Made by a program: the position numbers and the translations under genes
Part shown: in pieces, positions 31,047-46,800 of the stretch
How positions within the stretch are numbered: position 1 is the stretch's first letter
How the letters are laid out: each line of letters starts with the position of its first letter
Assembly: GCA_021792455.1 (NCBI GenBank)
Contig: JAJYUP010000007.1
Coordinates: 1 to 52,661, forward strand
Source: Actinomycetes bacterium
GTDB lineage: Bacteria; Actinomycetota; Thermoleophilia; Solirubrobacterales; Solirubrobacteraceae
Direction of reading: 5' to 3'
Length of the DNA: 52,661 bases
Notes under the pieces: generated by a model
Told to the model about the DNA's origin: nothing
Databases searched by the model: none
Seen by the model: only the letters and a program-made list of their open reading frames with translations

Positions 31047-31234
31047 CCCGCAATTCCGACAGCTATAGACGTCAGTGTCCGGGCGTGACGGACCTCGTCA
31101 GCTCGTCTGGTCAGGCAGCCGGCGAGTGCCCAGGGGGACCGGCACGAGGCCCCTGCAAAGGACGGGGCGGCGCTCTGGCCTGTGGGCGACCGCAAAGTAC
31201 GGCGCGCCGCTCGCGCGCACCGCAGGCGGTGCGC

Positions 31235-31240
31235 TAGCCT
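31235..31240 (+). promoter_or_regulatory. -10-like hexamer TAGCCT, leaderless start of the dehydrogenase gene
   Basis: TAGCCT ends seven bases before the GTG at 31248 with no ribosome binding site between, the geometry of a leaderless mRNA; it supports that start. Confidence 0.4.
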
Positions 31241-31247
31241 GCCGGCT

Positions 31248-32234
31248 GTGGACGAGTCGCTGCAGGCAGTGTCGGATGATCGGCCGCTCGTCGTGATCGC
31301 GCGAGTGCTGCTCGACTCGGGCCTGGCGCTGCTGAGCGAGCGCTGCGAGGTGCGATCAGGGGGGCTTCACGCGACGAGGGCGCAGATCCTCTCGCTCGTG
31401 CGTGGGGCTGCCGCGATCGTCAGCGACGCCTCTGTGTCGGTCGACGCGGAGCTGCTTGCTTCGTGCGGGCCGCAGCTGCAGATCGTCGCGAACTTCGCAG
31501 TCGGCTACGACAACGTCGATCTCGGGGCGTGCGCTGGGGCAGGGGTGCTCGTCACGAACACTCCTGGGGTGCTCTCGAGCGCGACCGCCGAACTCGCTGT
31601 CGCGTTGACGCTCGCGGCAGCCCGGGGCATCTTCGATGCCGCAGCCGACCTGCGGGCGGGCAGATGGCGCCACTGGGACCCGTCCGCCTACGCTGGCCCT
31701 CAGGTTGCCGGCTCTGTGCTCGGCGTCGTCGGCATGGGCCGCATAGGAACGGAGTACGCGCGGATGATGAAGGGGCTTGCCGTCAGGCAGATCCTGTACG
31801 CGAGCCGCTCAGCGAAGCCTGAGGTCGAGCGCGAGCTTCAGGCCTCACAGGTCGAGCTCGCTGAGCTGATGAGCGCCGCTGACATCGTCAGCCTGCACAC
31901 GCCCGCGACGGCAGAGACACACCAGCTGATCGATGCGCAGATGCTGAGCCTGATGAAGCCGAGCGCGATTTTGATCAACACCTCGAGGGGATCGGTGCTC
32001 GACGAGCTCGCGCTTGCGGCGGCGCTTTCGGAGGGGCGAATCTGGGGCGCGGGACTCGACGTCTTCGAGCGGGAGCCAAGCGTGCCAGATGAGCTGCTGA
32101 GCGCGCCGCGCGCGGTGCTGCTGCCGCACATCGGCTCTGCGACGGCGCGCGCACGCAACGAGATGGCGGTGCTCGTTGCGCGCAACGTGCTGAGCGTGCT
32201 CGATGGCGGTGAGGCGCTGACGCCTGTGTGCTGA
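31248..32234 (+). CDS. D-isomer-specific 2-hydroxyacid dehydrogenase
   Basis: 328 residues. NAD(P)-dependent reduction of a 2-oxo acid such as glyoxylate or hydroxypyruvate. Cofactor loop GVVGMGRIG, catalytic Arg in INTSRGSVLDE, Glu in LDVFEREP and His in LLPHIGSAT. FAVGYDNVDLGAC and TNTPGVLSSATAEL are the classic substrate-domain segments of glyoxylate/hydroxypyruvate reductases. Start is taken as GTG 31248 because of the TAGCCT hexamer seven bases upstream; GTG 31269 is an alternative. It converges on the C1/methylamine operon and is separated from it by a strong hairpin. A role in C1 or glyoxylate metabolism is possible but unproven. Confidence 0.92.
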   Translation: MDESLQAVSDDRPLVVIARVLLDSGLALLSERCEVRSGGLHATRAQILSLVRGAAAIVSDASVSVDAELLASCGPQLQIVANFAVGYDNVDLGACAGAGVLVTNTPGVLSSATAELAVALTLAAARGIFDAAADLRAGRWRHWDPSAYAGPQVAGSVLGVVGMGRIGTEYARMMKGLAVRQILYASRSAKPEVERELQASQVELAELMSAADIVSLHTPATAETHQLIDAQMLSLMKPSAILINTSRGSVLDELALAAALSEGRIWGAGLDVFEREPSVPDELLSAPRAVLLPHIGSATARARNEMAVLVARNVLSVLDGGEALTPVC

Positions 32235-32338: not shown

Positions 32339-33316
32339 TCAGCGTGCGAAGGACCGCAGCTCGTCGACCAGGTGCAGGGTGTCTGGGCGATCATGCCGCC
32401 CCTCGCGCCGCTCCGCGGCGAGCACGGCGTTATGCAGGACCCAAGCGTCCGTGATCGGCCCGACGCCGCCGGGAACGGGCGATACGGCGCCCGCGACCTC
32501 GATCGCGCTATCGAAGTCCACGTCGCCAACGAGCCTCGTCGATCCGCGGGCGTCGCTGATCGCGTTGATGCCGATGTCGATCACGATGCTGCCTGGGCGC
32601 AGCATCTCTCCTGTGATCAACCTCGGCACGCCCGCCGCAACGATCAGTATGTCGGCGAGGCGGGTGTGCTCGTCCAGCCTGTCGGCGTCAGCGGTGTGCT
32701 TGTGAGCCGAGATCACGGTCGCGTTGCGAGCGAGCCCGAGGATCGCCGCCGGCTTGCCGACGTTGTTCGAGCGGCCCACGATGACGAGGTCGAGCCCGTC
32801 GTATGCGAGTGCCGGATTCATGCCCTGGTCGAGCATGTAGCGGTCAAGCATCAGGAACGCCGCCGCAGGCGTGGATGGCAGGAACCTGGGTGTGCCCAGC
32901 GCAAGCAGCCCAGCGTTCTCCGGATGCTGTGCCTCGACGTCCTTCTCCGGCGGGATCGCGCGCAGGACGCGGGTCTCCGGCAGGCTTGCTGGCAGAGGCC
33001 GCAGCACCAGCATGCCGGAGATCTCCGGATCGACATCGAGCTCGGCGATCTTGCCGACGACCTGGCCGAGGCTCGCATCGGCGGGCAGGTGCTCGACTCG
33101 TGAGGCGACGCCGGCTTCGCGCGCTCCCCGGTCTATCCGCCGCTGATAGATCGAGGCCGTCACATCGTCGCCCACGAGCAGGGTTGCGATCCCGGCGCCA
33201 TGCTCCACGGCGCCTGCTCTGGCTGTGACGGCTCCCATCAGCTCTCGCGCGTATGCACGGCCATCGAGCGTGACGCCCGCGCTCACTGCTTCGTCGCCTG
33301 CGGGGAAGCTGAGCAC
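32339..33316 (-). CDS. Divergent FolD paralogue lacking canonical cyclohydrolase residues
   Basis: 325 residues with the FolD two-domain layout: LDGRAYARELM, the folate-side region, nucleotide-binding VIVGRSNNVGKPAAILG, VIDIGINAI and VSPVPGGVGPIT. It departs at the active site. The catalytic Lys of YVxxK is Ile in IYQRRIDRGAREAGV (aligned on the Tyr and the Gly 12 residues on). The Gln of VQLPLP is replaced (VLRPLP), and KDVDG reads KDVEA. These residues (human K56, Q100, D125) serve cyclohydrolase chemistry and folate binding. It is probably a dehydrogenase-only enzyme, a changed specificity, or an inactive partner of the neighbouring FolD. GTG start at 33316, one base after the other folD. 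Last gene of the ten-gene operon. Confidence 0.85.
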   Translation of the reverse strand: MLSFPAGDEAVSAGVTLDGRAYARELMGAVTARAGAVEHGAGIATLLVGDDVTASIYQRRIDRGAREAGVASRVEHLPADASLGQVVGKIAELDVDPEISGMLVLRPLPASLPETRVLRAIPPEKDVEAQHPENAGLLALGTPRFLPSTPAAAFLMLDRYMLDQGMNPALAYDGLDLVIVGRSNNVGKPAAILGLARNATVISAHKHTADADRLDEHTRLADILIVAAGVPRLITGEMLRPGSIVIDIGINAISDARGSTRLVGDVDFDSAIEVAGAVSPVPGGVGPITDAWVLHNAVLAAERREGRHDRPDTLHLVDELRSFAR

Positions 33317-33317
33317 A

Positions 33318-34229
33318 TCATCCTCGTTCTCGCTTGCGTTCGGAGATCTCCGCGGCCTTCAGCGTGTTGAGCAGGAGACAGGCGATCGTCATCGGCCCCA
33401 CCCCTCCAGGCACCGGCGTGCTCGCGCTGGCAAGTGGTCTCACGGCCGCGAAGTCGAGGGCCTCGTTTGGGCCCTCGTGTGTCCGTACTGCCCCGATGTC
33501 GATCACCACTGTGCCCGGGCTAACATGTGCTGCGCCGATTGCGCTCGGGGTTCCCGCGGCGATGACGAGGATCTGGGCGTGACGGCATATCTCCTTCAGG
33601 AAGCGCGTCTTCGCGTCGCAGATTGTGACGGTCGCCTCGCGCGCCAGCAGCATCGCTGCGAGCGGCTTGGCGATCAGGTTCGAGCGTCCGATGATGACGA
33701 CATGCCGGCTGGCGAGCGGCACCCGCGAGCGCTCGAGCAACTCGATCACCCCGAGGGGCGTGCAGGGCGGCAGGCCATCGTCGCCTCGCCACAGCGCGCC
33801 TGTGTTCGTCGTCGTCAGGCCGTCGACATCCTTCTCGGGAGCGATCAGGTTCGTCAGTGCGAGCGGGTCGAGGCCGGTGGGAAGCGGCAGCTGGAGCAGG
33901 ATGCCATCGACTGTCGTGTTCCCGTTCAGCGAGCGGATCACCTGTTCGAGCTCGGCAGCGCTCGTGTCTGCGGCAAGGCGGTGGTCGAATGAGAGGATGC
34001 CGACCTCCGTGCAGGCGTGGTGCTTGGCGTCTACGTAGGCCTGGATACTCGGGTCCTGGCCGACGAGGACGGTTGCGAGCACTGGCGCGCGCCGTCCAGC
34101 CAGTGCGCGTTCCCTCACGCGCGTTGCCGCAAGCGCCCGCAGCTGGGCGGAGATCGTGATGCCGTCGAGTGGCGCTCCGCGCTGCGCGCCTACTCTGCCT
34201 GGGACCCGGTGAACGTCCGCGAGTCCCAC
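33318..34229 (-). CDS. folD: Methylenetetrahydrofolate dehydrogenase/methenyltetrahydrofolate cyclohydrolase FolD
   Basis: 303 residues. NADP-linked oxidation of 5,10-methylene-THF and hydrolysis to 10-formyl-THF. The active site is canonical: AYVDAK (catalytic Lys), ILLQLPLP (Gln), PEKDVDGL (Asp), then VIIGRSNLIAKPLAAML (nucleotide loop, with Ile where most have Val-Gly) and STPVPGGVGPMT. Twenty residues before the usual APLDG start come from choosing GTG 34229, six bases after purU; a later start cannot be excluded. It lies between purU and a second, divergent folD, so the operon can turn methylene-THF into formate and NADPH. Confidence 0.93.
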   Translation of the reverse strand: MGLADVHRVPGRVGAQRGAPLDGITISAQLRALAATRVRERALAGRRAPVLATVLVGQDPSIQAYVDAKHHACTEVGILSFDHRLAADTSAAELEQVIRSLNGNTTVDGILLQLPLPTGLDPLALTNLIAPEKDVDGLTTTNTGALWRGDDGLPPCTPLGVIELLERSRVPLASRHVVIIGRSNLIAKPLAAMLLAREATVTICDAKTRFLKEICRHAQILVIAAGTPSAIGAAHVSPGTVVIDIGAVRTHEGPNEALDFAAVRPLASASTPVPGGVGPMTIACLLLNTLKAAEISERKRERG

Positions 34230-34235
34230 TGGCCC

Positions 34236-35138
34236 CTAGAACACGATCGTCGTGTTGCCGTTTACGAGTACGCGGTCTTCGCAGTGCCAGTTCACCGCTC
34301 GCGCGAACACGGCGCGCTCGATGTCGGCTCCAAGCGTGGCGAGCTCCGCTGCGCTGTGGTGGTGCGACACGCGAATCACATCTTGCTCGATGATCGGACC
34401 GGCGTCGAGCTCCTCGGTCACGTAGTGGGCGGTCGCACCGATCAGCTTCACGCCACGCTCCTTCGCGCGCTCATATGGGTTCGCGCCCGCGAAGGCGGGC
34501 AGGAAGCTGTGGTGGATGTTGATCACGGGGACGCCGACGCGGTCGAGGAACTCGCCGGTGAGGATCTGCATGTAGCGCGCGAGCACGACGAGGTCGACTC
34601 TGCCGTCGAGGAGCCTCAGCATCTCCCGCTCGGCCGCATTCTTTGCGTCCTTTGTGACAGGCACGTGCTCGTAGGGGACTCCGAAGGGTTCGACGTCAGA
34701 GCGCAGGTCAGGGTGGTTCGAGATCACGAGCACGATCTCCGCCTCCAGCTGGTCGCGGCGCCAGCGCCACAGCAGCTCGAGCAGGCACTGGTCGTGCTTG
34801 GAGACGAGGACCGCCACGCGCTTGCGCCTGCTCGCATCCCACATCGTCCACGTCATAGAAAACGGGTTACCCACCTCCCGTTCGAAGCGCGCTTCGAACT
34901 CGGTGCGGTCCCTGTCGGTGAGTGGAAGATAGAACTCGTTGCGCATGAAGAAGGAGCCTTCGGTCGGGTCGGTCGAGTACTGGGCCGAAGAGACGATGTT
35001 CGCCCCGGCCTCCTTCAGCAGCCCAGAGACGGCGGCGACGATGCCGGGACGGTCCGCACAGGAGATCAGCAGCCGCGTGATGTCCGTCGGCCCGCTCCGG
35101 TGCGGGCGCTCTAGCATCGGGGTCGCCATCGTGCCCAT
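34236..35138 (-). CDS. purU: Formyltetrahydrofolate deformylase PurU
   Basis: 300 residues: N-terminal ACT regulatory domain (LLISCADRPGIVAAVSGLLKEAGANIV), then a formyltransferase-fold domain with VAVLVSKHDQCLLELL, VINIHHSFLPAFAGANPY (catalytic Asn/His) and ATAHYVTEELDAGPIIEQD (catalytic Asp). It hydrolyses 10-formyl-THF to formate and THF, recycling folate when C1 units are in excess. The ATG at 35138 shares one base with the soxB stop. Position between the demethylating oxidase and the folD genes is typical of gene sets that dispose of formaldehyde released from N-methyl groups. Confidence 0.95.
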   Translation of the reverse strand: MGTMATPMLERPHRSGPTDITRLLISCADRPGIVAAVSGLLKEAGANIVSSAQYSTDPTEGSFFMRNEFYLPLTDRDRTEFEARFEREVGNPFSMTWTMWDASRRKRVAVLVSKHDQCLLELLWRWRRDQLEAEIVLVISNHPDLRSDVEPFGVPYEHVPVTKDAKNAAEREMLRLLDGRVDLVVLARYMQILTGEFLDRVGVPVINIHHSFLPAFAGANPYERAKERGVKLIGATAHYVTEELDAGPIIEQDVIRVSHHHSAAELATLGADIERAVFARAVNWHCEDRVLVNGNTTIVF

Positions 35139-36349
35139 CAGTGGCTCACCGCGGCGGCGGCCAGCTCCGAGACGAGGCTGTCTGTGTAGAAGCGCTCGAG
35201 CGCGAACGGGGCGATCAGGTCAGGCGTCCGGCCCGTCGCGATCAGCTCTGCCAGCGTCTTTCCGACTATCGGCGCCGCCTTGAAGCCGTAGGTGCCCCAT
35301 CCCGCGGAGATGTGGAAATTCGACAGCTCGGTTGCCCCCAGTATCGGGCTGTAGTCGGGAGATATGTCGCACAGTCCAGCCCAGGCTCGCAGCATGCGCG
35401 CATGCTCGAGCTGCGGAAACAGCTCAAGGGTGTGACGCGCCAACTCCTGGAGGAAGTTGAGCGTGTTCAGCATGCGGTAGGTGGTCCATGGTTCTATCTC
35501 CGCGCCCATCACGAACTCGCCGCGGTCGGACTGTGAGATGTAGACGTGCATCTGGGAGGAGACGATCACGACGTCGAGCAGCGGCTTGACCGGCTCGGTC
35601 ACACATGCCTGCAAGATGTGGGTCGTGATCGGCAGGGCGACGCCGGCCATCGCCGCTGTCAGTGACGACCAGCCTGCGGTTGCGCTGAGCACCGTGCCGG
35701 CGGCGACGGTGCCGCGCGTCGTCTGCACAGCGGTGATCCTGTCGCCGTCGCGCTGCATGCCGGTCACCTCAGTGCCTGGATGAATCTCCACGCCGCCTTC
35801 GTCAGCGCCCCGCGCGAAGCCCCACACGACCGCGTCATGCCTGATGATGCCGCCCGGTGGGTGATAGAGGGCGCCCATGACCGGATATGTCGCATCTGGA
35901 CTCAGAGACATCGCGGGCGCGAGTTGCTTGATCTCCTCTGGGCCGATCAGCCGCGAGTCGATGCGATTCAGTCGGTTGACCTCCGCCCTGTTTGCCATCA
36001 CAAACATCGCGCGGTCTGAGTGGGCGAGCGTGAGATGCCCGCATTTGCTGAACAGCAGGTTGAAAGACAGCTCCACGGCGAGCTGGTCGTAGAGCTTCAG
36101 GCTCGCGTCATAGAAGCGCGCGCCCTCTGGGGTCTTATAGTTGGAGCGGAGGATCGTCGTGTTTCGTCCCGCCGCCCCAGAGCCGATGTAGCCCTTCTCC
36201 AGCACCGCGACGTCAGTGATCCCCATCTTCTGGAGGTAGTAGGCCGTTGCCAGGCCATGGGCGCCGCCGCCGATGATCACGACCTCGTAGCTTCGCTTCA
36301 GCTCGCTGCGCGGACGCCACATGCGCCTGGTGCGGAACAGGTCACGCAC
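35138..36349 (-). CDS. soxB: Sarcosine oxidase/N-methylglutamate dehydrogenase beta-type subunit (SoxB/MgdA-like)
   Basis: 403 residues. FAD-dependent amine-oxidising subunit: dinucleotide motif VVIIGGGAHGLATAYYL (~23-40), AGRNTTILRSNYK and GGIIRHDAVVWGFARGA, the region carrying the covalent flavin His in the heterotetrameric enzyme. It ends with SAGWGTYGFKAAPIVGKTLAELI. It oxidises an N-methyl amino acid to the amino acid and a methylene unit. The GTG at 36349 overlaps the soxG stop by eight bases; ATG 36322 is a second option. It is the last of the four subunits here (order D-A-G-B, not the usual B-D-A-G). Confidence 0.92.
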   Translation of the reverse strand: MRDLFRTRRMWRPRSELKRSYEVVIIGGGAHGLATAYYLQKMGITDVAVLEKGYIGSGAAGRNTTILRSNYKTPEGARFYDASLKLYDQLAVELSFNLLFSKCGHLTLAHSDRAMFVMANRAEVNRLNRIDSRLIGPEEIKQLAPAMSLSPDATYPVMGALYHPPGGIIRHDAVVWGFARGADEGGVEIHPGTEVTGMQRDGDRITAVQTTRGTVAAGTVLSATAGWSSLTAAMAGVALPITTHILQACVTEPVKPLLDVVIVSSQMHVYISQSDRGEFVMGAEIEPWTTYRMLNTLNFLQELARHTLELFPQLEHARMLRAWAGLCDISPDYSPILGATELSNFHISAGWGTYGFKAAPIVGKTLAELIATGRTPDLIAPFALERFYTDSLVSELAAAAVSH

Positions 36350-36962
36350 TGACTGGCAACTCCCCTGCGCGCAGTGCGTCCAACCCGACCGGACGGCCTC
36401 CGAGATGCGCGCCGGCGTCGGAGACGACCGTCCAGATGTACTCGCCATACGCAGCTCCGAACAGCACCAGGTAGCGATCTCGTGTCTCACAGAGCACGTA
36501 TCCGGGCGTGCGCGCGACCGAACCTGGCATCAGTGTTCCCGGCGGACTTGTCTCTGGGCGCAGATCGAGCGCGCAGAAACGGGCGAGCAGATCCCGCGCG
36601 AGCGGTCCCGCGAGCGACAGCGCTGCGAGCTGTATCGTGATGTCGATCGCGTGCACGCCAGTGGCCTCGGGCGGCGTCATTGCGTCGAGCAGCAGCGCAC
36701 GCTCCGGCGTGAGCCGGAACCACAGGCCCCGCTCCGGCCGAGCACCCTCGAGGTGGGCGGGATCGCCCTGGATCTCGTGCTTGCGCCGATGTGAGACATC
36801 GGCCCACCCCACTGACTCGCCGCAGATGCGCCGCTCCAGCGCCGGGTCGCCGAAGTGCGTCGCCACCTGCCAGCCGTCGAGCGTCTGCAGCGTCGCACCT
36901 GCCTCTCGCAGAGGAGCGGCGAGCGGGCTGCGAGCACCAGCGCCAGCGGTGAGGAACCTCAT
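36342..36962 (-). CDS. soxG: Sarcosine oxidase/N-methylglutamate dehydrogenase gamma-type subunit (SoxG/MgdD-like)
   Basis: 206 residues of the SoxG family, related to the folate-binding aminomethyltransferase fold. Recognised by GWADVSHRRKHEIQGDPAHL, IDITIQLAALSLAGPLARDLLARFCALDLRPE and GYVLCETRDRYLVLFGAAYGEYIWTVV. The small structural subunit packs against the alpha chain. Start ATG overlaps the soxA stop (ATGA). Length is normal. It is one of four subunits and has no catalytic residues of its own that I can identify. Confidence 0.9.
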   Translation of the reverse strand: MRFLTAGAGARSPLAAPLREAGATLQTLDGWQVATHFGDPALERRICGESVGWADVSHRRKHEIQGDPAHLEGARPERGLWFRLTPERALLLDAMTPPEATGVHAIDITIQLAALSLAGPLARDLLARFCALDLRPETSPPGTLMPGSVARTPGYVLCETRDRYLVLFGAAYGEYIWTVVSDAGAHLGGRPVGLDALRAGELPVSA

Positions 36963-39850
36963 GATCTCAGCGCCGCTCCGTCGGGGTCGTAAAACGGCTT
37001 CGTCGTGATCAGCGCCTCAAGGGTGCGCTGTCCGTCGGAGATCGTGATCCTCGCGCCGTCGAACGCTGCCCCCGGAGGTACCCACGCCATGCCGATCGAC
37101 TGCTCGAGCTGCGCGGAGCGGCGCGCGCTCGTCACCTGCCCAACGACAGCTCCCCCAGGCTCGGCGAGCACGACAGCGCCCTCGGTTGGGACCTCGCCAG
37201 ACGGGACCGTGAAGCCGACGAGCATGCTCTGCGGCTCTCGTTGCGCCGCATCCTCGAGTGCCCATCTGCCGATGAAGTCATGGCTCTTGTCGAGCTTCAC
37301 GACCCACTGCATCGACGCGCTGTACGGAGTCGACTCCGAGTCTGTGTCCTGACCGACGAGTATGTGCTGCTTCTGCAGGCGCAGGATCCGCTGCGGCTCC
37401 AGGCCGAAGGGACGCACGCCGAGGTCGGCGCCGGCCTGAAGCAGCGCGGCCCACAGCTGCCCGGCGTTCGGTCCCGGACAGTGGATCTCATATCCAAGCT
37501 CGCCAACGAATCCGATCCGCAGCAGCAGGCACTCGATGCCCGCCACCTGCCCCTGCCTCGCGTCGAGGTACCTGAAGGACTCTGGGCCGACGTCGAAGTC
37601 GGCGATCTTTGCGAGCACCATGCGGGCGTTCGGCCCGGCGAGGTTCATTGCCGCCACACCCTGGGTGACATCGGTGATGTGTGCCTGCAGGCGCCAGTCC
37701 GCCAACCACCACGAGAACCACTGCTCGACGGCGGTGGCGCCGGTCGAGGTCGTCGTCACGTAGAAGGTCTCCTCGTCCAGCCGGCAGACGGTGCCGTCGT
37801 CAGTGATCCGGCCGCTGTCGGATAGAAGCACGCCGTAACGGATGCGTCCAGGCTGGAGCGTGGAGATCACGTTCGGGTATAGGCGGTCGAGCAGCTCCCC
37901 CGCCTCAGGTCCCCGCACGATCAGCTTACCGAGCGTCGAGACGTCGATCAGCCCCGCCCTCGTGTGGACCGCGAGCGCCTCGCCGTCCGGATCCCCGTAG
38001 TCGTAGGCCCTCCGCCAGTCGCCAGCCCAGCGGATGCTCGCGCCGAGACGACGGTGCTCGGCGTGCAGTGCCGAGCGCTTCGCGGGCTCAAACGGCCTGC
38101 CGGCGAGCACGCCAAGCGGCACGGAGACCCATGGCGGACGGGCGGTGGTCAGGCCGACCTCCTCTAGCGGCACGGCCGTCAGCTCTCCCAGCAGACGCGC
38201 ACTCCCCTGAGCGGAGAATCGTCCTTGGGAGGGCCCCATCGTGACGGTCGTATAGCGCTTCGCGAGCTCGATCACGTCGTAGCCCTCCTTCACCGCGAGG
38301 GCCATGTCTTTCACCGTCACGTCCTCGTCGAGGTCGACGAATGCCTTGCCGCCGCGCCGGCCGTCGCGGGTGTAGGCGGGGGCGGGGGTGAGCGGCTCTG
38401 CGCTGTGGCTCTCGAGGCGTTCGCGGAGAGCCCGCAGTTCGAGGCTCTCGGTGCCTGTGCCAGTGCCTGCGCTGGCGGAGCCCGCGCTTGCCTGCAGCCC
38501 CGCGATCTGGCCGGAGAGCTCGGCCGCGTCGACATCTTCGTAGCCGCAGATCGACCCGGCGGCATGTACGCCGTCGGGCAGCACGGTCGGCATGAATCGG
38601 TGCAACGCCGGCTCATAGCGCGCCTGCCCACCCGCCTGCAGCAGCAGTGATCCGCTGGGCATCATCCCGGCGCTCGTCGCGAGCAGGTCACACTCGATGC
38701 GCTGAGCGGCTTCCCTCGCACGGCCATCTGGTGTGACGGCGGCGAGCATCACCTCCTCGAGATGTCCTTTGCCTGCTGCGCGCACGACGGCAGCTCCAGG
38801 GAGCACCTCGACGCCGGCGCTCGCGAGTGCGATCGCCGCGGGGCGTCGCAGAGCGTCGGTGCGCAGATCGGCGACAGCTGCGATCTGAATGCCCTTCGCC
38901 TTCAGCGCGAGAGCGCTGTTCAGGCCCGAATCGCTGATGCATGCAACCACCGCGCGCTCCCCGGGCGCGAGCGCGTACAGCTCGGCGAGGCGCCGCGCTC
39001 CGCTCGCCAGCATCACGCCTGGAAGATCGTTCTCTGGGAACACGAACGGCTGCTCGATCGCACCGGTCGCCGCGATGTGGGTGCGCGCCCGCACCTGGTG
39101 GAGCACATCGCCCTGCCAGATCGCCACTAGCCCGTCGAAATAGCCGAGCGCAGACGCTCCGCTCAGCAACTCGACCCCGGCCTGCTCGGCGCGCGCTGCC
39201 AGCTGCCGTACGCGAGCCGCCCCGCCTTCCCATAGCAGCGATCCGCCAAGCTGCGGGCCCTCATCGCAGAGGACAACGTCCGCGCCCCGTTCCGCCGCGG
39301 CGAGCGCGGCCGACAGACCGGCGATCCCGCCGCCGATCACGAGCACATCGCAGTGCCTCCTGCGATATTCGGTGCGCCACTGTCTCTCTGCGCGGCTGCG
39401 TGGCAGTCGGCCGAGCCCCGCGGCCTTGCGCAGCGCCTGCTCATACAGGGGCCACAGTCGCCGCGGACGGATGAACGTCTTGTAATAGAAGCCGACGGGG
39501 GTGAGCAGGCCACCGATGCGATCGGTCACGCTCATCGCGTCGAAGCGCAGAGACGGCCAAGCGTTCTGGTGGACCACGGGCATGCCTGACTGCACCGCGT
39601 GCCCGCATGCGCGTACGCCGGGCGCATCGCCGACCTGCACGAGCGAGTTCGCGCACTGTCCGCAGCCGCAGATCTCACCGCGTGGTCGGTGGTACTTGAA
39701 GCTGCGCGAGAGCACGTGCTGTCCTGCGGCGAGCAGCGCGGATGCGATCGTGTCGCCCTCGAACGCGCTCACGCTCGCACCGTCGAAGGTGAAAGTCAAC
39801 GGTCGTGTCCGGTCGATCAGCTCGTCGGGCTGGGGTGGCAGGCGCCTCAT
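36959..39850 (-). CDS. soxA: Sarcosine oxidase/N-methylglutamate dehydrogenase alpha-type subunit (SoxA/MgdC-like) with an N-terminal Cys-rich site
   Basis: 963 residues. N-terminal ferredoxin-like domain (LTFTFDGASVSAFEGDTIASAL), NAD/FAD-binding domain (VIGGGIAGL, 171-179, and later Rossmann parts), then a C-terminal aminomethyltransferase domain that takes the methylene group onto THF (GLIDVSTLGKLIVRG and FGLEPQRILRLQKQHI). In the N-terminal part PRGEICGCGQCANSL...VRAC has Cys61, 63, 66 and 82. This resembles a plant-type 2Fe-2S site in which the usual third Cys is Ser69 and an extra Cys63 is present. Many SoxA proteins have no Cys here. ATG overlaps the soxD stop. Confidence 0.92.
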   Translation of the reverse strand: MRRLPPQPDELIDRTRPLTFTFDGASVSAFEGDTIASALLAAGQHVLSRSFKYHRPRGEICGCGQCANSLVQVGDAPGVRACGHAVQSGMPVVHQNAWPSLRFDAMSVTDRIGGLLTPVGFYYKTFIRPRRLWPLYEQALRKAAGLGRLPRSRAERQWRTEYRRRHCDVLVIGGGIAGLSAALAAAERGADVVLCDEGPQLGGSLLWEGGAARVRQLAARAEQAGVELLSGASALGYFDGLVAIWQGDVLHQVRARTHIAATGAIEQPFVFPENDLPGVMLASGARRLAELYALAPGERAVVACISDSGLNSALALKAKGIQIAAVADLRTDALRRPAAIALASAGVEVLPGAAVVRAAGKGHLEEVMLAAVTPDGRAREAAQRIECDLLATSAGMMPSGSLLLQAGGQARYEPALHRFMPTVLPDGVHAAGSICGYEDVDAAELSGQIAGLQASAGSASAGTGTGTESLELRALRERLESHSAEPLTPAPAYTRDGRRGGKAFVDLDEDVTVKDMALAVKEGYDVIELAKRYTTVTMGPSQGRFSAQGSARLLGELTAVPLEEVGLTTARPPWVSVPLGVLAGRPFEPAKRSALHAEHRRLGASIRWAGDWRRAYDYGDPDGEALAVHTRAGLIDVSTLGKLIVRGPEAGELLDRLYPNVISTLQPGRIRYGVLLSDSGRITDDGTVCRLDEETFYVTTTSTGATAVEQWFSWWLADWRLQAHITDVTQGVAAMNLAGPNARMVLAKIADFDVGPESFRYLDARQGQVAGIECLLLRIGFVGELGYEIHCPGPNAGQLWAALLQAGADLGVRPFGLEPQRILRLQKQHILVGQDTDSESTPYSASMQWVVKLDKSHDFIGRWALEDAAQREPQSMLVGFTVPSGEVPTEGAVVLAEPGGAVVGQVTSARRSAQLEQSIGMAWVPPGAAFDGARITISDGQRTLEALITTKPFYDPDGAALRS

Positions 39851-40143
39851 CTGTGCCCCTCCTGCGAACCGGCGGAACGGACCGGGGGGGCGTCAGCTGG
39901 CAGCGCGGTCCAGATCACCTCGTTCGTGCGGGTGTCGCGTTCGGCGAGGAACCATGCCTGGCACCCGGAGCGATGTACCCACCACTCGCGTTGGCGCCCG
40001 GCGACGTTTCGCCTGAAGTAGTTGTAGGAGGCGAGCTCGCGCGACTGTGGTCTCGCGCTTGGGCGGGAGCTGGTCTCGCCGCCGAAGCCGAAGTCGGTCA
40101 GCTCCCTGACCCCGCAGTTCGGACACCTGAGCAGAAAGGACAC
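39847..40143 (-). CDS. soxD: Sarcosine oxidase/N-methylglutamate dehydrogenase delta-type subunit (SoxD/MgdB-like)
   Basis: 98 residues. Zinc-binding small subunit: LLRCPNCGVRELTDFGFGGE at the N-terminus and HRSGCQAWFLAERDTRTNEV near the C-terminus supply the Cys/His ligands expected for SoxD. ASYNYFRRNVAGRQREWW is the family core. The GTG at 40143 starts two bases after the mgsC stop; an upstream in-frame start would only extend into that gene. Typical length ~90-100. Required for assembly of the four-subunit enzyme. Confidence 0.92.
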   Translation of the reverse strand: MSFLLRCPNCGVRELTDFGFGGETSSRPSARPQSRELASYNYFRRNVAGRQREWWVHRSGCQAWFLAERDTRTNEVIWTALPADAPPVRSAGSQEGHR

Positions 40144-40145
40144 AG

Positions 40146-41507
40146 CTAGCGAACCTCCATGCCTGGGATCCAACGCGTGCCGGCCAGCGGAACACGCGCC
40201 ATTGCTGCTGCCTCGATGGTGAGCGCGACGAGGTCCTCAGGCTCGAGGTTGCGGACGTGAGACTTGCCGCACGCCCGGGCGAGCGTCTGCGTCTCGAGCA
40301 CGAGTGCGCGCAGGTAGTTGGCAAGGCGACGCCCGCCGAGCTGCGGGTCCAGGCGGGCTTCCAGGTGAGGATCCTGCGTGGATATGCCGGCCGGGTCGCG
40401 CCCTTCGTGCCAGTCGTCGTAGCAGCCGGCGGCGGAGCCGATCTTCGCGTAGTCGGCTTCGAAGCTCGGGGAGTTGTCTCCGAGTGCGACGAGCGCGGCT
40501 GTACCGATCGAGACCGCGTCGGCACCGAGCGCGAGTGCCTTCGCGACGTCGGCGCCGCTGCGGATGCCGCCTGAGACGATCAGCTGCACCCTGCGGTGCA
40601 TGCCAAGCTCCTGCAGCGCCTCGACCGCCTGCGGGATCGCGGCGAGGATCGGGATGCCGACATGCTCGATGAATACCTCCTGGGTGGCGGCGGTTCCTCC
40701 CTGCATCCCGTCGAGCACTACGACGTCCGCCCCCGCCTTCACCGCGAGCGTCACGTCATAGTAGGTGCGGGTAGCGCCGATCTTCACGAAGATCGGCTTC
40801 TCCCAGTCGGTTATCTCGCGCAGCTCCTCGATCTTGATCTCCAGGTCGTCGGGACCGGTCCAGTCGGGATGCCTGCATGGGCTGCGCTGGTCGATGCCAA
40901 CCGGCAGATCGCGCATGTCCGCGACCCGCTCGGAGATCTTTTGGCCGAGCAGCATGCCGCCGCCTCCTGGCTTCGCGCCCTGGCCGACGACCACCTCGAT
41001 CGCATCTGCCCGACGCAGGTCGTCCGGGTTCATGCCGTAGCGGGAAGGCAGCAGCTGATAGACGAGTGTGTCGGAGGAAAGCCGCTCCTCCCTGCTCATC
41101 CCGCCGTCGCCGGTGGTCGTGCTCGTGCCGAGCGCGCTCGCGCCGAGACCAAGTGCTTCCTTCGCGTTCGCCGAGAGCGAGCCGAAGCTCATGCCCGCGA
41201 TCGTGATCGGTATCGCGAGCCGCAGCGGCTTTCTCGCAAATCGGGTTCCGAGCCTCACATCCGTCGCACACTGCTCACGGTAGCCCTCGAGCGGATATCG
41301 CGAGATGCTTGCGCCGAGCAGCAGCAGGTCGTCGAAGTGCGGCACGTGCCGCTTCGCTCCGCCTCCCCGGATGTCGTAGATGCCCGTGCGGGCAGCGCGC
41401 TGGATCTCGTGGATCGTGAGCGCGTCGAATGTGGAGGATTCGCGCAGGCCGAGCTGTGCTCGCCTCCTACAGGCGCCTTCCGGGCGTCCGGCGCTGACTT
41501 CAGGCAT
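40146..41507 (-). CDS. mgsC: FMN-binding glutamate-synthase-like subunit (MgsC/GlxD type)
   Basis: 453 residues of the glutamate synthase central/FMN domain as a stand-alone protein. Key segments: ITIAGMSFGSLSANAKEALGLGA, TGDGGMSREER, VVGQGAKPGGGGMLLGQKI, VKIGATRTYYDVTLAVKAGADVVVLDGMQGGTAA and the late GKSHVRNLEPEDLVALT. In N-methylglutamate synthase this subunit joins ammonia-free glutamate chemistry to a methylamine donor; in GlxD-type sets the substrate is less sure. Start ATG lies inside the mgsB end (8-base overlap). I see no cluster of Cys residues for an added ferredoxin domain. Confidence 0.9.
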   Translation of the reverse strand: MPEVSAGRPEGACRRRAQLGLRESSTFDALTIHEIQRAARTGIYDIRGGGAKRHVPHFDDLLLLGASISRYPLEGYREQCATDVRLGTRFARKPLRLAIPITIAGMSFGSLSANAKEALGLGASALGTSTTTGDGGMSREERLSSDTLVYQLLPSRYGMNPDDLRRADAIEVVVGQGAKPGGGGMLLGQKISERVADMRDLPVGIDQRSPCRHPDWTGPDDLEIKIEELREITDWEKPIFVKIGATRTYYDVTLAVKAGADVVVLDGMQGGTAATQEVFIEHVGIPILAAIPQAVEALQELGMHRRVQLIVSGGIRSGADVAKALALGADAVSIGTAALVALGDNSPSFEADYAKIGSAAGCYDDWHEGRDPAGISTQDPHLEARLDPQLGGRRLANYLRALVLETQTLARACGKSHVRNLEPEDLVALTIEAAAMARVPLAGTRWIPGMEVR

Positions 41508-42231
41508 CGGGGTGGCGGTAGTCGCCAGCGTTGTCGACGTGGAAGTTGTAGAGTTCTCGTGCAGAGGCGTAGCGGCGGAACTCGGCTGCGTTCACCGCAG
41601 CGATCTCCGCCCGCTCGAGCAGTTCGCGCAGCTCGGATACATCCTCATCGCGCATCTCCTGTTCGACGCAGTCGGCGCCAAGGGCGGCGACGCTGCCACG
41701 CACGTATACAGTGGCCTCGTACAGCGAGTCGCCGAGCGAGTGCCCAGCGTCGCCGCAGACGACGAGTCGTCCGCGCTGGGCCATGAACGCGCCGAGGTGC
41801 GCGATCGATCCCTCCACCACGATGTCTGCGCCCTTCAGAGAGATGCCGCAGCGCGCGGAGGCGTCGCCATGCACTACGAGCAGCCCGCCATGGGCACTCG
41901 CGCCGGCGGACTGGCTCGCGTTGCCGTGAATCACCACCAACCCTGACATCATGTTCTCTGCGACGCCGACGCCGCAGTTGCCGAGCACGCGCACGTTGGC
42001 GCGCTGGTTCATTCCCGCGCAGTAGTAGCCGACGTGCCCCGCGATCTCGACGTCAAGCTCTGCGTCCAATCCGACGGCGATGCTGTGCTTGCCGCCTGGA
42101 TTCACGACCTGCCAGGACCGTGGCATGCCGCTTGAACAGGCTTCATGCAGTCGTGAGTTCAGCTGACGCAGGGGCTCACCGGCGAGGTCGAACTTCGCGA
42201 CATCGACGAGTGCGTCCTCCAGCGCGGTCAT
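41500..42231 (-). CDS. mgsB: Glutamate-synthase C-terminal-like subunit (MgsB/GlxC type)
   Basis: 243 residues with the GXGXG beta-helix repeats of the glutamate synthase C-terminal domain: VGYYCAGMNQRANVRVLGNCGVGVAENMMSG then GASAHGGLLVVHGDASARCGISLKGADIVV. It has a structural role in coupling the amidotransferase and FMN subunits. The ATG at 42231 overlaps the stop of the amidotransferase gene (ATGA). Stand-alone subunits of this size occur in N-methylglutamate synthase and archaeal-type glutamate synthases. Confidence 0.9.
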   Translation of the reverse strand: MTALEDALVDVAKFDLAGEPLRQLNSRLHEACSSGMPRSWQVVNPGGKHSIAVGLDAELDVEIAGHVGYYCAGMNQRANVRVLGNCGVGVAENMMSGLVVIHGNASQSAGASAHGGLLVVHGDASARCGISLKGADIVVEGSIAHLGAFMAQRGRLVVCGDAGHSLGDSLYEATVYVRGSVAALGADCVEQEMRDEDVSELRELLERAEIAAVNAAEFRRYASARELYNFHVDNAGDYRHPDA

Positions 42232-43136
42232 GTGAACACCGTCGTGCCCCAGGTGTAGACCCTGCCCCCCTCCGGCTCCCACACCTGCGCATCGGCGGCG
42301 CCCGGCAGCAGTGCGAGCGCCCTGAACTCGGAGGCCATCGCCACCCAGTCGTCGGTCTCGGCGATCACCGCCGGCTTGCAGGCAATCGGGTCGCGCAGCA
42401 CGGCGAATCCGTCGAGCGTGCCGACCGCGAATGTGTAGAAGCCGTCGAGATCCTCGAGGCATCCCTCCAGCGCCTGCTCGATGCTCGAGCCTCCGCGCAA
42501 GCGCCAGGTCAAGTATCCGGCCGCGACCTCTGAGTCGTTCTCCGTCCGAAACGATATGCCCTCACGTTGCAGCTCCCTGCGCAGCTGGTTGTGGTTGGAA
42601 AGCGAGCCGTTGTGGACCAGGCACAGATCGAGTCCGGTCGAGAAGGGATGGGAGCCGTTCGGGTTGACACGGCTCTCCGTTGCCATCCGGGTGTGCCCGA
42701 GAGCGTGAGTGCCACTCATGCGCGCAAGCTCGAAGCGCTCGACGAAGATCCTCGGCGAGACAGCGTCCTTGTAGATCTCCAGCGCACGGCCCACGCTCAT
42801 CACGTCGAGCTCTGGCATGTGCGTTTCGATCCAGTGCTGCACGGCATCTGGCTCGCCTGCCACCTGCAGGCAGGCGTACGCCTGCCCCGATCTGTGGGTG
42901 TTCGCGCTGCCGAACTCCCTTGCGAGCTCGGACTCCAGCATCCTCCAATCGGTCCCGGGCTGCTCCGTGCGCATCGAGACGCGACAGGCACCCGCCCCCA
43001 ATGGAGATCCATAGATGGCTGCGCCGGCGCTGTCCGGCCCGCGCGCGCTCATCTCGACGAGCATGCGCGACATATGACTGCCCAGTTGCCCCGCGATCGC
43101 GCTCGACTTGCTGAATATGCCAACGATGCCGCACAT
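42228..43136 (-). CDS. mgsA: Class II glutamine amidotransferase-like subunit (MgsA/GlxB type)
   Basis: 302 residues. The frame opens with MCGIVGIF: Cys2 is the nucleophile of class II amidotransferases after removal of Met. Supporting blocks: MSARGPDSAGAA, ALGHTRMATESRVNPNGSHPF and LVHNGSLSNHNQLRREL. Paired with MgsB and MgsC it makes the three-subunit glutamate-synthase-like complex, taking the amide (or methylamide) nitrogen of a glutamine analogue. The ATG is fixed by Cys2. TACGAT lies seven bases upstream, so translation may be leaderless. First gene of the operon, divergent from gmaS. Confidence 0.92.
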   Translation of the reverse strand: MCGIVGIFSKSSAIAGQLGSHMSRMLVEMSARGPDSAGAAIYGSPLGAGACRVSMRTEQPGTDWRMLESELAREFGSANTHRSGQAYACLQVAGEPDAVQHWIETHMPELDVMSVGRALEIYKDAVSPRIFVERFELARMSGTHALGHTRMATESRVNPNGSHPFSTGLDLCLVHNGSLSNHNQLRRELQREGISFRTENDSEVAAGYLTWRLRGGSSIEQALEGCLEDLDGFYTFAVGTLDGFAVLRDPIACKPAVIAETDDWVAMASEFRALALLPGAADAQVWEPEGGRVYTWGTTVFT

Positions 43137-43143
43137 CGCCGCG

Positions 43144-43149
43144 ATCGTA
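43144..43149 (-). promoter_or_regulatory. -10-like hexamer TACGAT, leaderless start of mgsA
   Basis: TACGAT on the minus strand ends exactly seven bases before the mgsA ATG, and there is no ribosome site. Likely start point of the ten-gene methylated-amine operon. No convincing -35 box. Confidence 0.42.
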
Positions 43150-43244
43150 GACGGCGCCCAACCCCATCGCCATGATCGTGTTCGCCACACCTTCGCGCCG
43201 CTTTATGGACGCGATGACCATATCTGGCGCGGCATCATCCGCTT

Positions 43245-43273
43245 TTGTCGATGTGCGGAGACGGGTGTAGACT
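43245..43273 (+). promoter_or_regulatory. Candidate promoter TTGTCG-N17-TAGACT for the glutamine-synthetase-like gene
   Basis: A -35-like TTGTCG (43245-43250) and -10-like TAGACT (43268-43273) with ideal 17-base spacing lie in the divergent gap. The transcript would have a leader of about 115 bases before the ATG at 43395. Confidence 0.45.
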
Positions 43274-43359
43274 CAATCCACAACGTGACAACTAACCATG
43301 GACGAAGTGAACATTGCCGTCTGCTGATCGCTTCCGCTTAGCTATAGCCGGACCTCACA

Positions 43360-43374
43360 ACGCGCCCGGCGCGT
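43360..43374. promoter_or_regulatory. Inverted repeat ACGCGCC-C-GGCGCGT in the gmaS leader
   Basis: A perfect 7+1+7 palindrome 20 bases before the start codon. It could be a regulator site (the PucR protein is encoded two genes on) or chance in GC-rich DNA. Confidence 0.3.
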
Positions 43375-43394
43375 GTGGAAACGGAAGCGCGAGC

Positions 43395-44828
43395 ATGGGG
43401 AGCGCCATAGTGCACAGCACCAACAAGATCGTCCAGCCCTCGTCCTCGCTCGCGCTGTCCCTGAAGCCGTTGCCCCTGACTGCAGATGATGTTCGGTCCT
43501 ATGTCGCGGAGCACGGCATCGAGTACCTGTTCGCGCAGTTCGTCGATATGCACGGAAAGCCGAGCGCGAAGCTCGTCCCGGCGCACCACCTCGACGACCT
43601 GCTCGACGCGGGCGTGGGCTTCGCTGGCTTTGCGGCGGGCGAGATAGGCCAGCGTCCGAGTGACCCGGACATCTGTGCCCTCCCTGATCCTGCCAGTTTC
43701 ACACCCCTGCCTTGGCGCCCGAATGTCGCCCGCATCGCTTGTGACCTGTACGTCAAGGGTGAGCCCTGGCCCTACTGTCCACGGACGATCTTGCGGCGAG
43801 CGCTGGAGAGGGCGAGTGCACTCGGCTACGAATTGAAGATCGGGATCGAGCTCGAGTACTTCCTCGTGCGACGCTGGCCTGACGGCTCGATCGAGCTCGC
43901 TGACAGCCTCGACACACTTGAGCAGCCCTGTTATGACATGCGCGCGCTCAGCAGGAACATCGACTTCGTCAGCGAGGTGGCGAGCTATCTCACCGCCCTC
44001 GGCTGGGACAACTACGCGACAGACCACGAGGACGGCAACGGGCAGTTCGAGCAGAACTTCGCCTTCGACTACGCTCTGACGACATGCGATCGCGCAATCT
44101 TCTTTCGCTACATGGTGCAGATGCTCGCGCAGGCGCGTGGCATGATCGCAACCTTCATGCCGAAGCCGTTCTCGCATCTGACTGGCAACGGCGCCCACAT
44201 CCATCTCAGCCTGTGGCGGGACGGGGTGAACCTGCTGGCTGCTGATCCCGCGAGCGATCCGCATGGGATGGGCCTGTCGGCGACGGGCTACCACTGCGTC
44301 GGCGGCTTGAAGCATCATGCTCAGGCCTACATCGCGCTCACTGCGCCGACGGTCACCTCTTACAAGCGGCTCGTGCTCGGTTCGCGCAGCGGGTCCGCGT
44401 GGGCACCGGTCTATGTCAGCTACGGTCATGACAACCGCACTCAGATGCTGAGGATTCCAGGGCCAGGTCGCATCGAGGACCGCACAGTCGACGGGTCCTG
44501 CAATCCCTATCTCGCGACGACGGCGATCCTCGCTGCAGGGCTCGACGGCATCGAACGAGAGCTCGACCCTGGCGACCCGACGTCGGAGCTCAACCTCCAC
44601 GATCTCGACGATGCTGGGCGTGCGGAGCTCGGCATCGAGCTGCTTCCCTCCAACCTGCTCGACGCGACCCGAAACCTTGAGGGCGATGAGGTGCTCCGAA
44701 GGGCACTCGGCTCGCACGGCGGCAAGGACTACGTCGACTACTTTGTCTCCGTCAAGCGCCGCGAATGGCGCGAAGCTCACGAGCAGATCACGCCATGGGA
44801 GATCAACCGCTACCTGCAGCTGTACTGA
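43395..44828 (+). CDS. Type III glutamine synthetase, gamma-glutamylmethylamide synthetase-like
   Basis: 477 residues of the GlnT/GS III group. FAQFVDMHGKPSAKLVP is the family N-terminal block; ATP/glutamate-site segments are KIGIELEYFLV, HEDGNGQFEQNFAFDYALTTCD, NGAHIHLSLW and YGHDNRTQMLRIPGPGRIEDR, and the end block is NPYLATTAILAAGLDGI. GS III members next to mgs genes make gamma-glutamylmethylamide from glutamate and methylamine, the donor for MgsABC. The ATG at 43395 has GGAAG upstream; ~30 residues precede the usual start. Divergent from the mgs/sox operon and followed 39 bases later by a PucR regulator. Methylamine rather than ammonia as substrate is inferred from context. Confidence 0.88.
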   Translation: MGSAIVHSTNKIVQPSSSLALSLKPLPLTADDVRSYVAEHGIEYLFAQFVDMHGKPSAKLVPAHHLDDLLDAGVGFAGFAAGEIGQRPSDPDICALPDPASFTPLPWRPNVARIACDLYVKGEPWPYCPRTILRRALERASALGYELKIGIELEYFLVRRWPDGSIELADSLDTLEQPCYDMRALSRNIDFVSEVASYLTALGWDNYATDHEDGNGQFEQNFAFDYALTTCDRAIFFRYMVQMLAQARGMIATFMPKPFSHLTGNGAHIHLSLWRDGVNLLAADPASDPHGMGLSATGYHCVGGLKHHAQAYIALTAPTVTSYKRLVLGSRSGSAWAPVYVSYGHDNRTQMLRIPGPGRIEDRTVDGSCNPYLATTAILAAGLDGIERELDPGDPTSELNLHDLDDAGRAELGIELLPSNLLDATRNLEGDEVLRRALGSHGGKDYVDYFVSVKRREWREAHEQITPWEINRYLQLY

Positions 44829-46798: not shown

Positions 46799-46800
46799 AA

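What the first reader, a model, noticed from the sequence alone, without database searches (positions are those of the whole stretch)
32339..44828. Complete N-methylglutamate-type methylated-amine system joined to a folate C1 branch
The minus-strand operon encodes three stand-alone glutamate-synthase-like subunits, the four sarcosine-oxidase-type subunits, PurU and two FolD proteins. A type III glutamine synthetase and a PucR regulator lie divergently. In known methylotrophs the same family set (GmaS, MgsABC, MgdABCD) turns methylamine into gamma-glutamylmethylamide, N-methylglutamate and a methylene unit. Here the methylene unit could go through FolD and PurU to formate. All genes are seen directly; the methylamine role is inferred from the combination, because MgdABCD and SoxBDAG cannot be told apart by eye. 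Such a compact set with both C1 genes in an apparent actinobacterium looks unusual.
Basis: partly seen in the sequence, partly recalled or inferred. Interest (0 to 1): 0.78.

Follow-up and report, generated by a model that had tools for sequence, protein, structure and literature searches.

The report
Methylamine-to-formate operon in an actinobacterium
This stretch of DNA carries what looks like a complete set of genes for using methylamine by way of N-methylglutamate, with attached folate enzymes that would turn the freed carbon into formate; the pathway is already known from other bacteria, so this is a new member with a few altered parts.

Summary
In detail: MgsABC-type, SoxDAGB-type, PurU and two FolD genes on the minus strand; a type III glutamine synthetase and a PucR-type regulator divergent. 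Sequence tests favour methylamine over sarcosine oxidase plus ordinary GS. The synthetase lies in one supported clade with two solved GmaS-type enzymes and matches 14 of 17 GmaS positions; MgsC is 78.5% identical to a Methylobacterium protein; SoxA and SoxB separate from true sarcosine oxidases in trees and on NCBIfam cut-offs. Substrate use is untested. 'Unusual' is not supported: Pseudomonas-type, Pantoea and Acidithiobacillus caldus loci hold the same set, a review reports a purU-folD-mgdABCD operon in Pseudomonas sp. C5pp, and a close MgsC is in 28 of 199 sampled genomes of the same class. In mapped relatives PurU or formate-THF ligase follows SoxB in 18 of 20 distinct loci. Variant details: an alpha subunit with possible [2Fe-2S] cysteines that proteobacterial counterparts and sarcosine oxidases lack; a rare FolD paralogue with three catalytic residues replaced; a candidate selenocysteine formate dehydrogenase elsewhere in the genome. 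New member of a known kind.

The parts
32339..33316 (-). FolD2: FolD paralogue with the catalytic Lys, Gln and Asp replaced by Ile, Arg and Glu; C-terminal nucleotide-binding half looks intact
   Evidence: Pfam PF00763/PF02882; alignment with two relatives that share the changes
33318..34229 (-). FolD1: FolD with catalytic Lys, Gln and Asp kept but the GDVD stretch degenerate
34236..35138 (-). PurU, formyltetrahydrofolate deformylase
   Evidence: NCBIfam TIGR00655 375.7 bits, cut-off 285.95
35138..36349 (-). SoxB/MgdA-type flavin subunit (longest ORF to 36490)
   Evidence: PF01266; TIGR01373 457 bits, below the cut-off of 529; tree and residues; start estimated
36342..36962 (-). SoxG/MgdD-type subunit
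   Evidence: weak PF01571 match; position between SoxA and SoxB as in relatives
36959..39850 (-). SoxA/MgdC-type subunit: Fer2_4 domain with Cys61, Cys63, Cys66 and Cys82, flavin domain, C-terminal GCV_T (folate-binding) domain
   Evidence: PF13510, PF17806, PF01571, PF08669; alignment A1; tree; motif count
39847..40143 (-). SoxD/MgdB-type small subunit (longest ORF to 40173)
   Evidence: PF04267; start estimated
40146..41507 (-). MgsC-type FMN glutamate-synthase domain, lacking the CxxC...C motif that the A. caldus form keeps
   Evidence: PF01645; 78.5% to Methylobacterium sp. DM1; motif
41500..42231 (-). MgsB-type GXGXG subunit (longest ORF to 42462)
   Evidence: PF01493; start estimated
42228..43136 (-). 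MgsA-type class II glutamine amidotransferase with an N-terminal MCGI (longest ORF to 43190)
   Evidence: PF13522; start estimated
43395..44828 (+). GmaS-type synthetase of the type III glutamine synthetase family (longest ORF from 43314)
   Evidence: TIGR03105 576.6 bits, cut-off 469.6; tree and residues
44795..46705 (+). GAF + PucR-type HTH regulator (longest ORF from 44765), a neighbour of the cluster in relatives
   Evidence: PF13185, PF13556; homologue in 10 loci and in 3 (two of these 3 being repeats of loci)

Best explanation
A complete N-methylglutamate pathway with its own tetrahydrofolate (THF) oxidation branch. GmaS joins methylamine to glutamate using ATP; MgsABC turns the gamma-glutamylmethylamide plus 2-oxoglutarate into N-methylglutamate and glutamate; the SoxBDAG-type MgdABCD oxidises N-methylglutamate back to glutamate and passes the carbon to THF in the GCV_T domain of the alpha subunit as 5,10-methylene-THF. 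FolD takes this to 10-formyl-THF, PurU releases formate, and a candidate selenocysteine formate dehydrogenase elsewhere in the genome could oxidise formate to CO2. The gain would be nitrogen and reducing power; growth on methylamine as sole carbon source is not implied. Shown: gene content, order, relationships and residues. Inferred from homology: every reaction, the substrate, the electron acceptor and control by the PucR-type protein.
For: Synthetase: above the TIGR03105 cut-off. Best solved structures: 9qur, named Glutamate--methylamine ligase, 410 bits, and 7cql, 398 bits; best glutamine synthetase 266.9. In a 56-row tree it lies in a 41-row clade with both (95/92) and in a 26-row subclade with 7cql (100/99), apart from 9 GSI rows (100/100). 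14 of 17 positions discussed for RhGmaS match; at 30, 48, 177, 188 and 300 the window has K, A, D, N, W where the 9 GSI rows have V/F, D, H, D, E (positions from PMC7948447). MgsC is 78.5% identical to that of Methylobacterium sp. DM1 and lacks the same cysteines. SoxA and SoxB stand apart from 3 and 2 sarcosine oxidase rows, support 100 each. Three reference sarcosine oxidase alpha subunits exceed the soxA cut-off of 1164 (1249-1474 bits) while the window has 772, A. caldus 834 and Pseudomonas huaxiensis 895; for soxB (cut-off 529) the reference has 732, the window 457, A. caldus 474. PurU or formate-THF ligase follows SoxB by 3-178 bp in 19 of 22 relatives' loci, 18 of 20 without two repeats. 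Pseudomonas sp. C5pp has gmas-mgsABC-amt and purU-folD-mgdABCD operons (PMC8292978). FDH with in-frame TGA and a tRNA-Sec on one contig.
Against: No assay, transcript or growth data. Gln175 of RhGmaS, which lines the methylamine pocket, is Ala here and in the near relatives, so another small amine is possible. The loci were fetched with an alignment led by the window's own SoxA, and only 2-3 true sarcosine oxidases were in the trees. FolD2 lacks catalytic residues and FolD1 has a degenerate stretch, so the middle folate step is the least certain; a third, ordinary-looking FolD lies elsewhere in the genome (sequence). Two of the 20 mapped relatives (L063, L067) lack both PurU and Fhs within the sequence held. 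The formate dehydrogenase scores 627.6 bits, below its model's cut-off of 666.
Confidence: 0.88

Rival explanations
1. The same pathway chemistry for another primary amine (for example ethylamine): the synthetase makes a different gamma-glutamylamide and the dehydrogenase removes a different N-alkyl group.
For: Pocket residue Gln175 is Ala in the window and its near relatives, which could enlarge the site; related genomes hold paralogous GS-like and MgsC-like proteins of unknown substrate.
Against: The other pocket and catalytic positions are those of RhGmaS. The attached PurU/Fhs/FolD/FchA genes handle one-carbon units, and PurU or Fhs follows SoxB in 18 of 20 distinct loci. MgsC is nearly as close to that of Methylobacterium sp. 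DM1 (78.5%) as to most in its own class (79-88%).
Confidence: 0.08
2. SoxBDAG is a true sarcosine oxidase feeding the folate genes from betaine, while the GS and glutamate-synthase-like genes serve ammonia assimilation and are neighbours by accident.
For: Same subunit make-up and folate domain; purU lies near soxDAG in an Arthrobacter plasmid; NCBIfam's nearest names are sarcosine oxidase subunits.
Against: Trees and NCBIfam cut-offs with reference sarcosine oxidases separate them; the GS lacks the Asp, His and Glu found at three positions in the 9 GSI rows; no serine dehydratase (as beside the references) or fdhA is among the window genes that I scanned; the joint cluster recurs across genera.
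Confidence: 0.03

Closest known systems
Pseudomonas sp. C5pp gmas-mgsABC-amt and purU-folD-mgdABCD operons (Kamini et al. 2018a, seen only as cited in PMC8292978, passages)
   Same: Same enzyme set, PurU and FolD included
   Different: Two operons 37.7 kb apart there; here one block with PurU and two FolD genes at the 3' end, a PucR-type regulator, no amt among the window genes scanned, and cysteines in the alpha subunit. C5pp sequences were not compared.
Acidithiobacillus caldus ATCC 51756 plasmid mpAca1.1
   Same: purU, SoxB-, SoxD- and SoxA-type genes, glnT, MgsABC-type genes and folD in one locus
   Different: Other order; MgsC 69.6% identical and keeping the cysteines; alpha subunit without the Fer2_4 cysteines; a 177-aa ORF sits in the gamma position but matched no family
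Methyloversatilis universalis FAM5 and Methylocella silvestris BL2 clusters (as described in PMC8292978, passages)
   Same: gmaS, mgsABC and mgdABCD clustered
   Different: No purU or folD named in the clusters there; sequences not compared here
Mycobacterium sp. 141 and 155 (PMC5023230, passages)
   Same: Actinobacterial Gma and MgsA-C, N-methylglutamate pathway proposed
   Different: mgdA-D, FolD and PurU elsewhere in the genome, judged by their gene numbers
Heterotetrameric sarcosine oxidase (PDB 2gag, 1vrq; Arthrobacter, Burkholderia and Paraburkholderia plasmid loci)
   Same: Subunit make-up and folate domain
   Different: Separate in trees; 19 differing beta-subunit columns; above the NCBIfam cut-offs that the window fails; no cysteines at the Fer2_4 motif in the two solved alpha chains

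Membership tests
GmaS (gamma-glutamylmethylamide synthetase) | Groups with GmaS, apart from glutamine synthetases | tested here: met
   In a clade with PDB 9qur and 7cql (95/92); 9 GSI rows outside (100/100). GSII and eukaryote-type GS not included. That 7cql is the RhGmaS of PMC7948447 is recalled; its residue numbers fit the paper.
GmaS (gamma-glutamylmethylamide synthetase) | Catalytic Asp177, Glu186, Arg312; Ala48 and Trp300 in place of the GS Asp and Glu | tested here: met
   All five present; roles from PMC7948447, abstract and passages
GmaS (gamma-glutamylmethylamide synthetase) | Gln175 of the pocket | tested here: not met
   Ala, as in the near relatives and the Mycobacterium and Streptomyces plasmid rows; the paper calls most, not all, pocket residues conserved, so I do not treat it as defining
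GmaS (gamma-glutamylmethylamide synthetase) | Methylamine as preferred substrate | not testable with these tools
   Needs an assay
N-methylglutamate synthase MgsABC | Three stand-alone glutamate-synthase-like subunits beside gmaS | tested here: met
N-methylglutamate synthase MgsABC | N-methylglutamate synthase activity | not testable with these tools
   Needs an assay
N-methylglutamate dehydrogenase MgdABCD | SoxBDAG-type subunits distinct from sarcosine oxidase | tested here: met
   few reference rows
N-methylglutamate dehydrogenase MgdABCD | Oxidises N-methylglutamate | not testable with these tools
   Needs an assay
Heterotetrameric sarcosine oxidase | Scores above the NCBIfam soxA/B/D/G cut-offs | tested here: not met
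   772 of 1164, 457 of 529, 74 of 117, 21 of 144 bits; reference sarcosine oxidases pass for soxA (3 of 3) and soxB (1 of 1); soxD and soxG had no such control
THF-linked C1 oxidation to formate | PurU (or Fhs) and FolD beside the dehydrogenase | tested here: met
Bifunctional FolD | Catalytic Lys, Gln and Asp | tested here: not met
   Met in FolD1, not in FolD2 (Ile, Arg, Glu); roles from passages of PMC3338484 and PMC6443876

The most novel reading that the evidence does not exclude
A variant N-methylglutamate module, typical of Thermoleophilia and found in other non-proteobacterial lineages, whose dehydrogenase carries a [2Fe-2S] cluster in its alpha subunit as an electron exit (a true dehydrogenase, not an oxidase). 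In this genome two degenerate FolD paralogues would also split the folate step, FolD2 acting as dehydrogenase and FolD1 mainly as cyclohydrolase; in one relative FolD2 sits directly beside a stand-alone FTCD_C (FchA-type) cyclohydrolase, as that split would predict.
Probability: 0.3. Interest if true: 0.55.

Novelty: new member of a known kind. Interest (0 to 1): 0.36.

Why it matters
It places a well-defined methylamine pathway, with its folate end, in the actinobacterial class Thermoleophilia, whose members are abundant in soil and hot-spring samples and seldom cultivated (abstract of PMC6544083, as listed). The formate-forming step right after SoxB, made by either of two enzymes, looks like a regular part of the module there. 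The cysteine-bearing alpha subunit gives a concrete lead on how N-methylglutamate dehydrogenase passes on its electrons. Gene surveys built on proteobacterial gmaS may miss this lineage (inference, not tested).

Tried and rejected
Sarcosine oxidase plus ordinary GS/GOGAT: rejected on trees, residues and NCBIfam cut-offs. ABC transporter at 46790-50649: not counted as part of the system, because the printed maps (L034-L087, L127-L131 and the L180-L195 rows) show no match to its binding protein; they show weak ATPase matches (24-33%) in L041, L046, L048, L077 and L129, and the permease was not mapped. FolD2 as a pseudogene: not favoured, since the ORF is full length and the same replacements recur in G301 and G249. 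A stand-alone FTCD_C cyclohydrolase in the own genome: none found, in an assembly 83% complete. Literature: no paper on this pathway in Thermoleophilia among the 6 of 6 papers listed, the 15 of 61 listed, the 7 or the 5, judged by title and start of abstract; passages were read of PMC5023230, PMC7948447, PMC8292978, PMC3160333, PMC3338484, PMC6443876, PMC8262859 and PMC9173628. 'Heterotetrameric sarcosine oxidase' with '2Fe-2S': 0 papers.

Rows dropped: the first GS tree had long branches and had lost its four GSI rows; for four rows (L060_GS30, L095_GS29, L099_GS27, L110_GS27) were dropped and eight GSI rows added. SoxA tree: 71 of 89 rows kept (18 Pseudomonas-type rows dropped; rows under 38% identity or 700 residues had not been taken). 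SoxB tree: 60 rows, after dropping 19 named loci and rows under 45% or 330 residues; the Arthrobacter SoxB was lost in trimming, which left two reference rows. The SoxA, SoxB and first GS trees are 'quick' trees; the GS tree is 'careful'. The nine loci with the whole set became seven with unrounded identity limits. Structure prediction was not run.
Full report
WHAT IS THERE. The window is a whole contig of a draft genome (3.15 Mb, 242 contigs, 83% complete). ORFs, translations and family scans confirm each gene named. Minus strand: MgsA-, MgsB- and MgsC-type proteins, SoxD, SoxA, SoxG, SoxB, PurU, FolD1, FolD2. Plus strand: a type III glutamine synthetase and a GAF/PucR-HTH regulator. With the starts estimated, minus-strand neighbours overlap or lie within a few bases, as in one operon; transcription was not tested. 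The host belongs to the class Thermoleophilia: genome G068, 'same class' as the window's, is the Gaiellaceae record of L064 (taxonomy). The order is probably Solirubrobacterales, the order of Conexibacter, whose locus L060 is the nearest named row in the SoxA tree.

IS THE SYNTHETASE A GmaS? By the sequence tests made, yes. It scores 576.6 bits on TIGR03105 (cut-off 469.6), but so might other type III enzymes, hence the tree. Best solved structures are 9qur, named glutamate--methylamine ligase (410 bits), and 7cql (398; the Rhodovulum GmaS by recall, its residue numbers fitting PMC7948447); the best glutamine synthetase has 266.9. In a careful tree of 56 rows it lies in a 41-row clade with both (95/92) and in a 26-row subclade with 7cql (100/99); nine GSI rows are outside (100/100). 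Of 17 positions discussed in PMC7948447 (abstract and passages), 14 match, including Asp177, Glu186, Arg312, Ala48 and Trp300. The three others are Gln175 to Ala, Trp189 to Phe and Tyr191 to Phe. Ala175 is shared by all the near relatives in the tree and by the Mycobacterium and Streptomyces plasmid rows. It leaves room for a shifted substrate and is the main doubt.

ARE THE OTHER SUBUNITS THE METHYLAMINE TYPE? MgsC is 78.5% identical to that of Methylobacterium sp. DM1 over 428 residues. It lacks the CxxC...C motif in the same way as the Methylobacterium, Pseudomonas, Mycobacterium and Streptomyces rows, while the A. caldus, Binatia and Planctomyces rows keep it; that these are the [3Fe-4S] ligands of glutamate synthase is recalled. 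SoxA (71 rows) and SoxB (60 rows) stand apart from the reference sarcosine oxidases, 3 and 2 rows, support 100 each. Two of the reference loci carry serine dehydratase with purU or fdhA; the third is from Burkholderia vietnamiensis. At 19 beta-subunit columns where both sarcosine oxidases agree and at least 85% of the other 58 rows (the window among them) agree on something else, the window has the latter. A control on NCBIfam fits: three reference alpha subunits score 1431, 1249 and 1474 on soxA (cut-off 1164), against 772 for the window, 834 for A. caldus and 895 for Pseudomonas huaxiensis; on soxB (cut-off 529) the reference has 732, the window 457 and A. caldus 474.

THE FOLATE BRANCH. I listed 33 Thermoleophilia-type loci by hand; 22 have SoxB with at least 2 kb beyond it. 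In 19 of these PurU or formate-THF ligase follows on the same strand at 3-178 bp. Two are repeats (L193 of L064, L195 of L067; a few other pairs were compared, not all), which leaves 18 of 20; the two without are L063 and L067. L051 has both enzymes. L047 and L052 add an FTCD_C (FchA-type) gene. The own genome also holds a formate dehydrogenase alpha gene with an in-frame TGA where selenocysteine is usual (placement by recall; 627.6 bits, below the model's cut-off of 666), beside a NuoF-like gene and an Fe-S protein gene, and a tRNA-Sec match (66.6 bits, gathering score 47) on the same contig; a second, weaker match (47.3) lies elsewhere. SelA and SelB were not sought. So formate can plausibly go on to CO2.

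IS IT UNUSUAL? Not by these searches. Of 39 loci L088-L126, nine hold PurU, FolD, a GmaS-type GS, MgsC and SoxA: Pseudomonas in seven, a MAG titled Paucimonas and Candidatus Pantoea formicae (titles). Their gamma subunits were not systematically checked; the two candidate ORFs tested gave a weak GCV_T match in L094 and no match in A. caldus. The A. caldus plasmid otherwise has the set. A review states that Pseudomonas sp. C5pp has gmas-mgsABC-amt and purU-folD-mgdABCD operons and assigns purU and folD to the route to formic acid (PMC8292978, passages). Actinobacterial Gma and MgsA-C are in print for Mycobacterium (PMC5023230, passages), the pathway for Binatota, and methylamine-oxidation signatures for Actinobacteria among other phyla (PMC8262859, passages). 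In the window's class, MgsC of at least 78% identity over the matched part is in 28 of 199 sampled genomes, the own genome included and one by a partial match. The trait is patchy: in the genus, 2 of 24 genomes have a GS above the type III cut-off, and 9 of 61 relatives in all. The same order, with GmaS and PucR divergent and PurU after SoxB, stands in L035, L060 and L191; L035 also has FolD there.

WHAT DIFFERS. (1) The alpha subunit. Its Fer2_4 domain has Cys61, Cys63, Cys66 and Cys82, with Ser69 where a C-x4-C-x2-C motif would have its third cysteine. Of 89 SoxA rows examined, the window included, 43 have the four-cysteine motif; 5 have the window's form (window, L035, L040, L048, L060); 36 have no cysteine there, among them A. 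caldus, Paracoccus, the Pseudomonas-type rows, a Planctomycetota row (L124) and three Thermoleophilia-type rows (L049, L055, L057); 2 have a single cysteine; 3 were not covered by the pattern. The two solved sarcosine oxidase alpha chains show none in the aligned stretch. A [2Fe-2S] electron exit is a fair guess, unproven, and less sure for the window's form than for the four-cysteine rows. (2) FolD2. Lys, Gln and Asp are Ile, Arg and Glu. In 299 class genomes the matches at E <= 1e-55 are G301 (67%) and G249 (56%), then none above 48%. Both share the pattern, with Leu for Ile in G249, and in G249 an FTCD_C gene lies directly beside it. FolD1 keeps the catalytic residues but has a degenerate GDVD stretch. 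Division of labour is an inference.

MECHANISM AND LIMITS. Shown: genes, order, relationships, residues. Inferred: reactions, substrate, regulation, electron acceptor. The likely use is methylamine as a nitrogen source with formate oxidation for energy; carbon assimilation was not examined.

VERDICT. A real, complete and well-identified N-methylglutamate system with a folate branch: a new member of a known kind with some variant parts.

Noticed in passing
G000:C216 (L190) and G000:C216:18651-18741: Formate dehydrogenase alpha gene with an in-frame TGA at the usual selenocysteine place, beside a NuoF-like gene (450 bits, below cut-off) and an Fe-S protein gene, with a tRNA-Sec match (66.6 bits) on the same contig.
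   Followed up: partly
L043:13986-19480; L044:13986-19466; L041:6482-11771: GmaS and MgsABC with a single FAD oxidoreductase next to them and no SoxA-type match in the locus: in the Mycobacterium methanotrophicum plasmid (DAO family by Pfam), the Streptomyces sp. NBC_01320 plasmid (annotation only) and G033 (weak SoxB-like match only). Possibly a one-subunit stand-in for N-methylglutamate dehydrogenase.
   Followed up: partly
L052, L072, L079, L092; G057:C4: A paralogous set: GS of 33-35% identity to the window's with Val at position 48, and in some of these genomes MgsC-like proteins of about 50-57%; substrate unknown.
   Followed up: no
L040 (G034:C378): MgsC (81%) and SoxA (67%) near the window's but a GS from another branch (43%), so the synthetase may have been exchanged within the module.
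   Followed up: no
window 31182-32234; L047:17391-18398; L052 about 16904-17869: A 2-hydroxyacid dehydrogenase (glyoxylate reductase-like) gene lies convergent at the 3' end of the cluster in the window and in two relatives.
   Followed up: partly
L057: Record titled Bifidobacterium breve, but its SoxA and GS group with Thermoleophilia rows; the title is probably wrong.
   Followed up: no
window 6078-11845: Hydantoinase/oxoprolinase B-type protein with an acetone carboxylase gamma-like C-terminal piece, an A-type partner, then an FMN-dependent dehydrogenase.
   Followed up: no
window 27074-30992: Acetoacetate--CoA ligase and a PHA synthase (class I and II models, both below cut-off) on the minus strand, beyond the 2-hydroxyacid dehydrogenase.
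   Followed up: no
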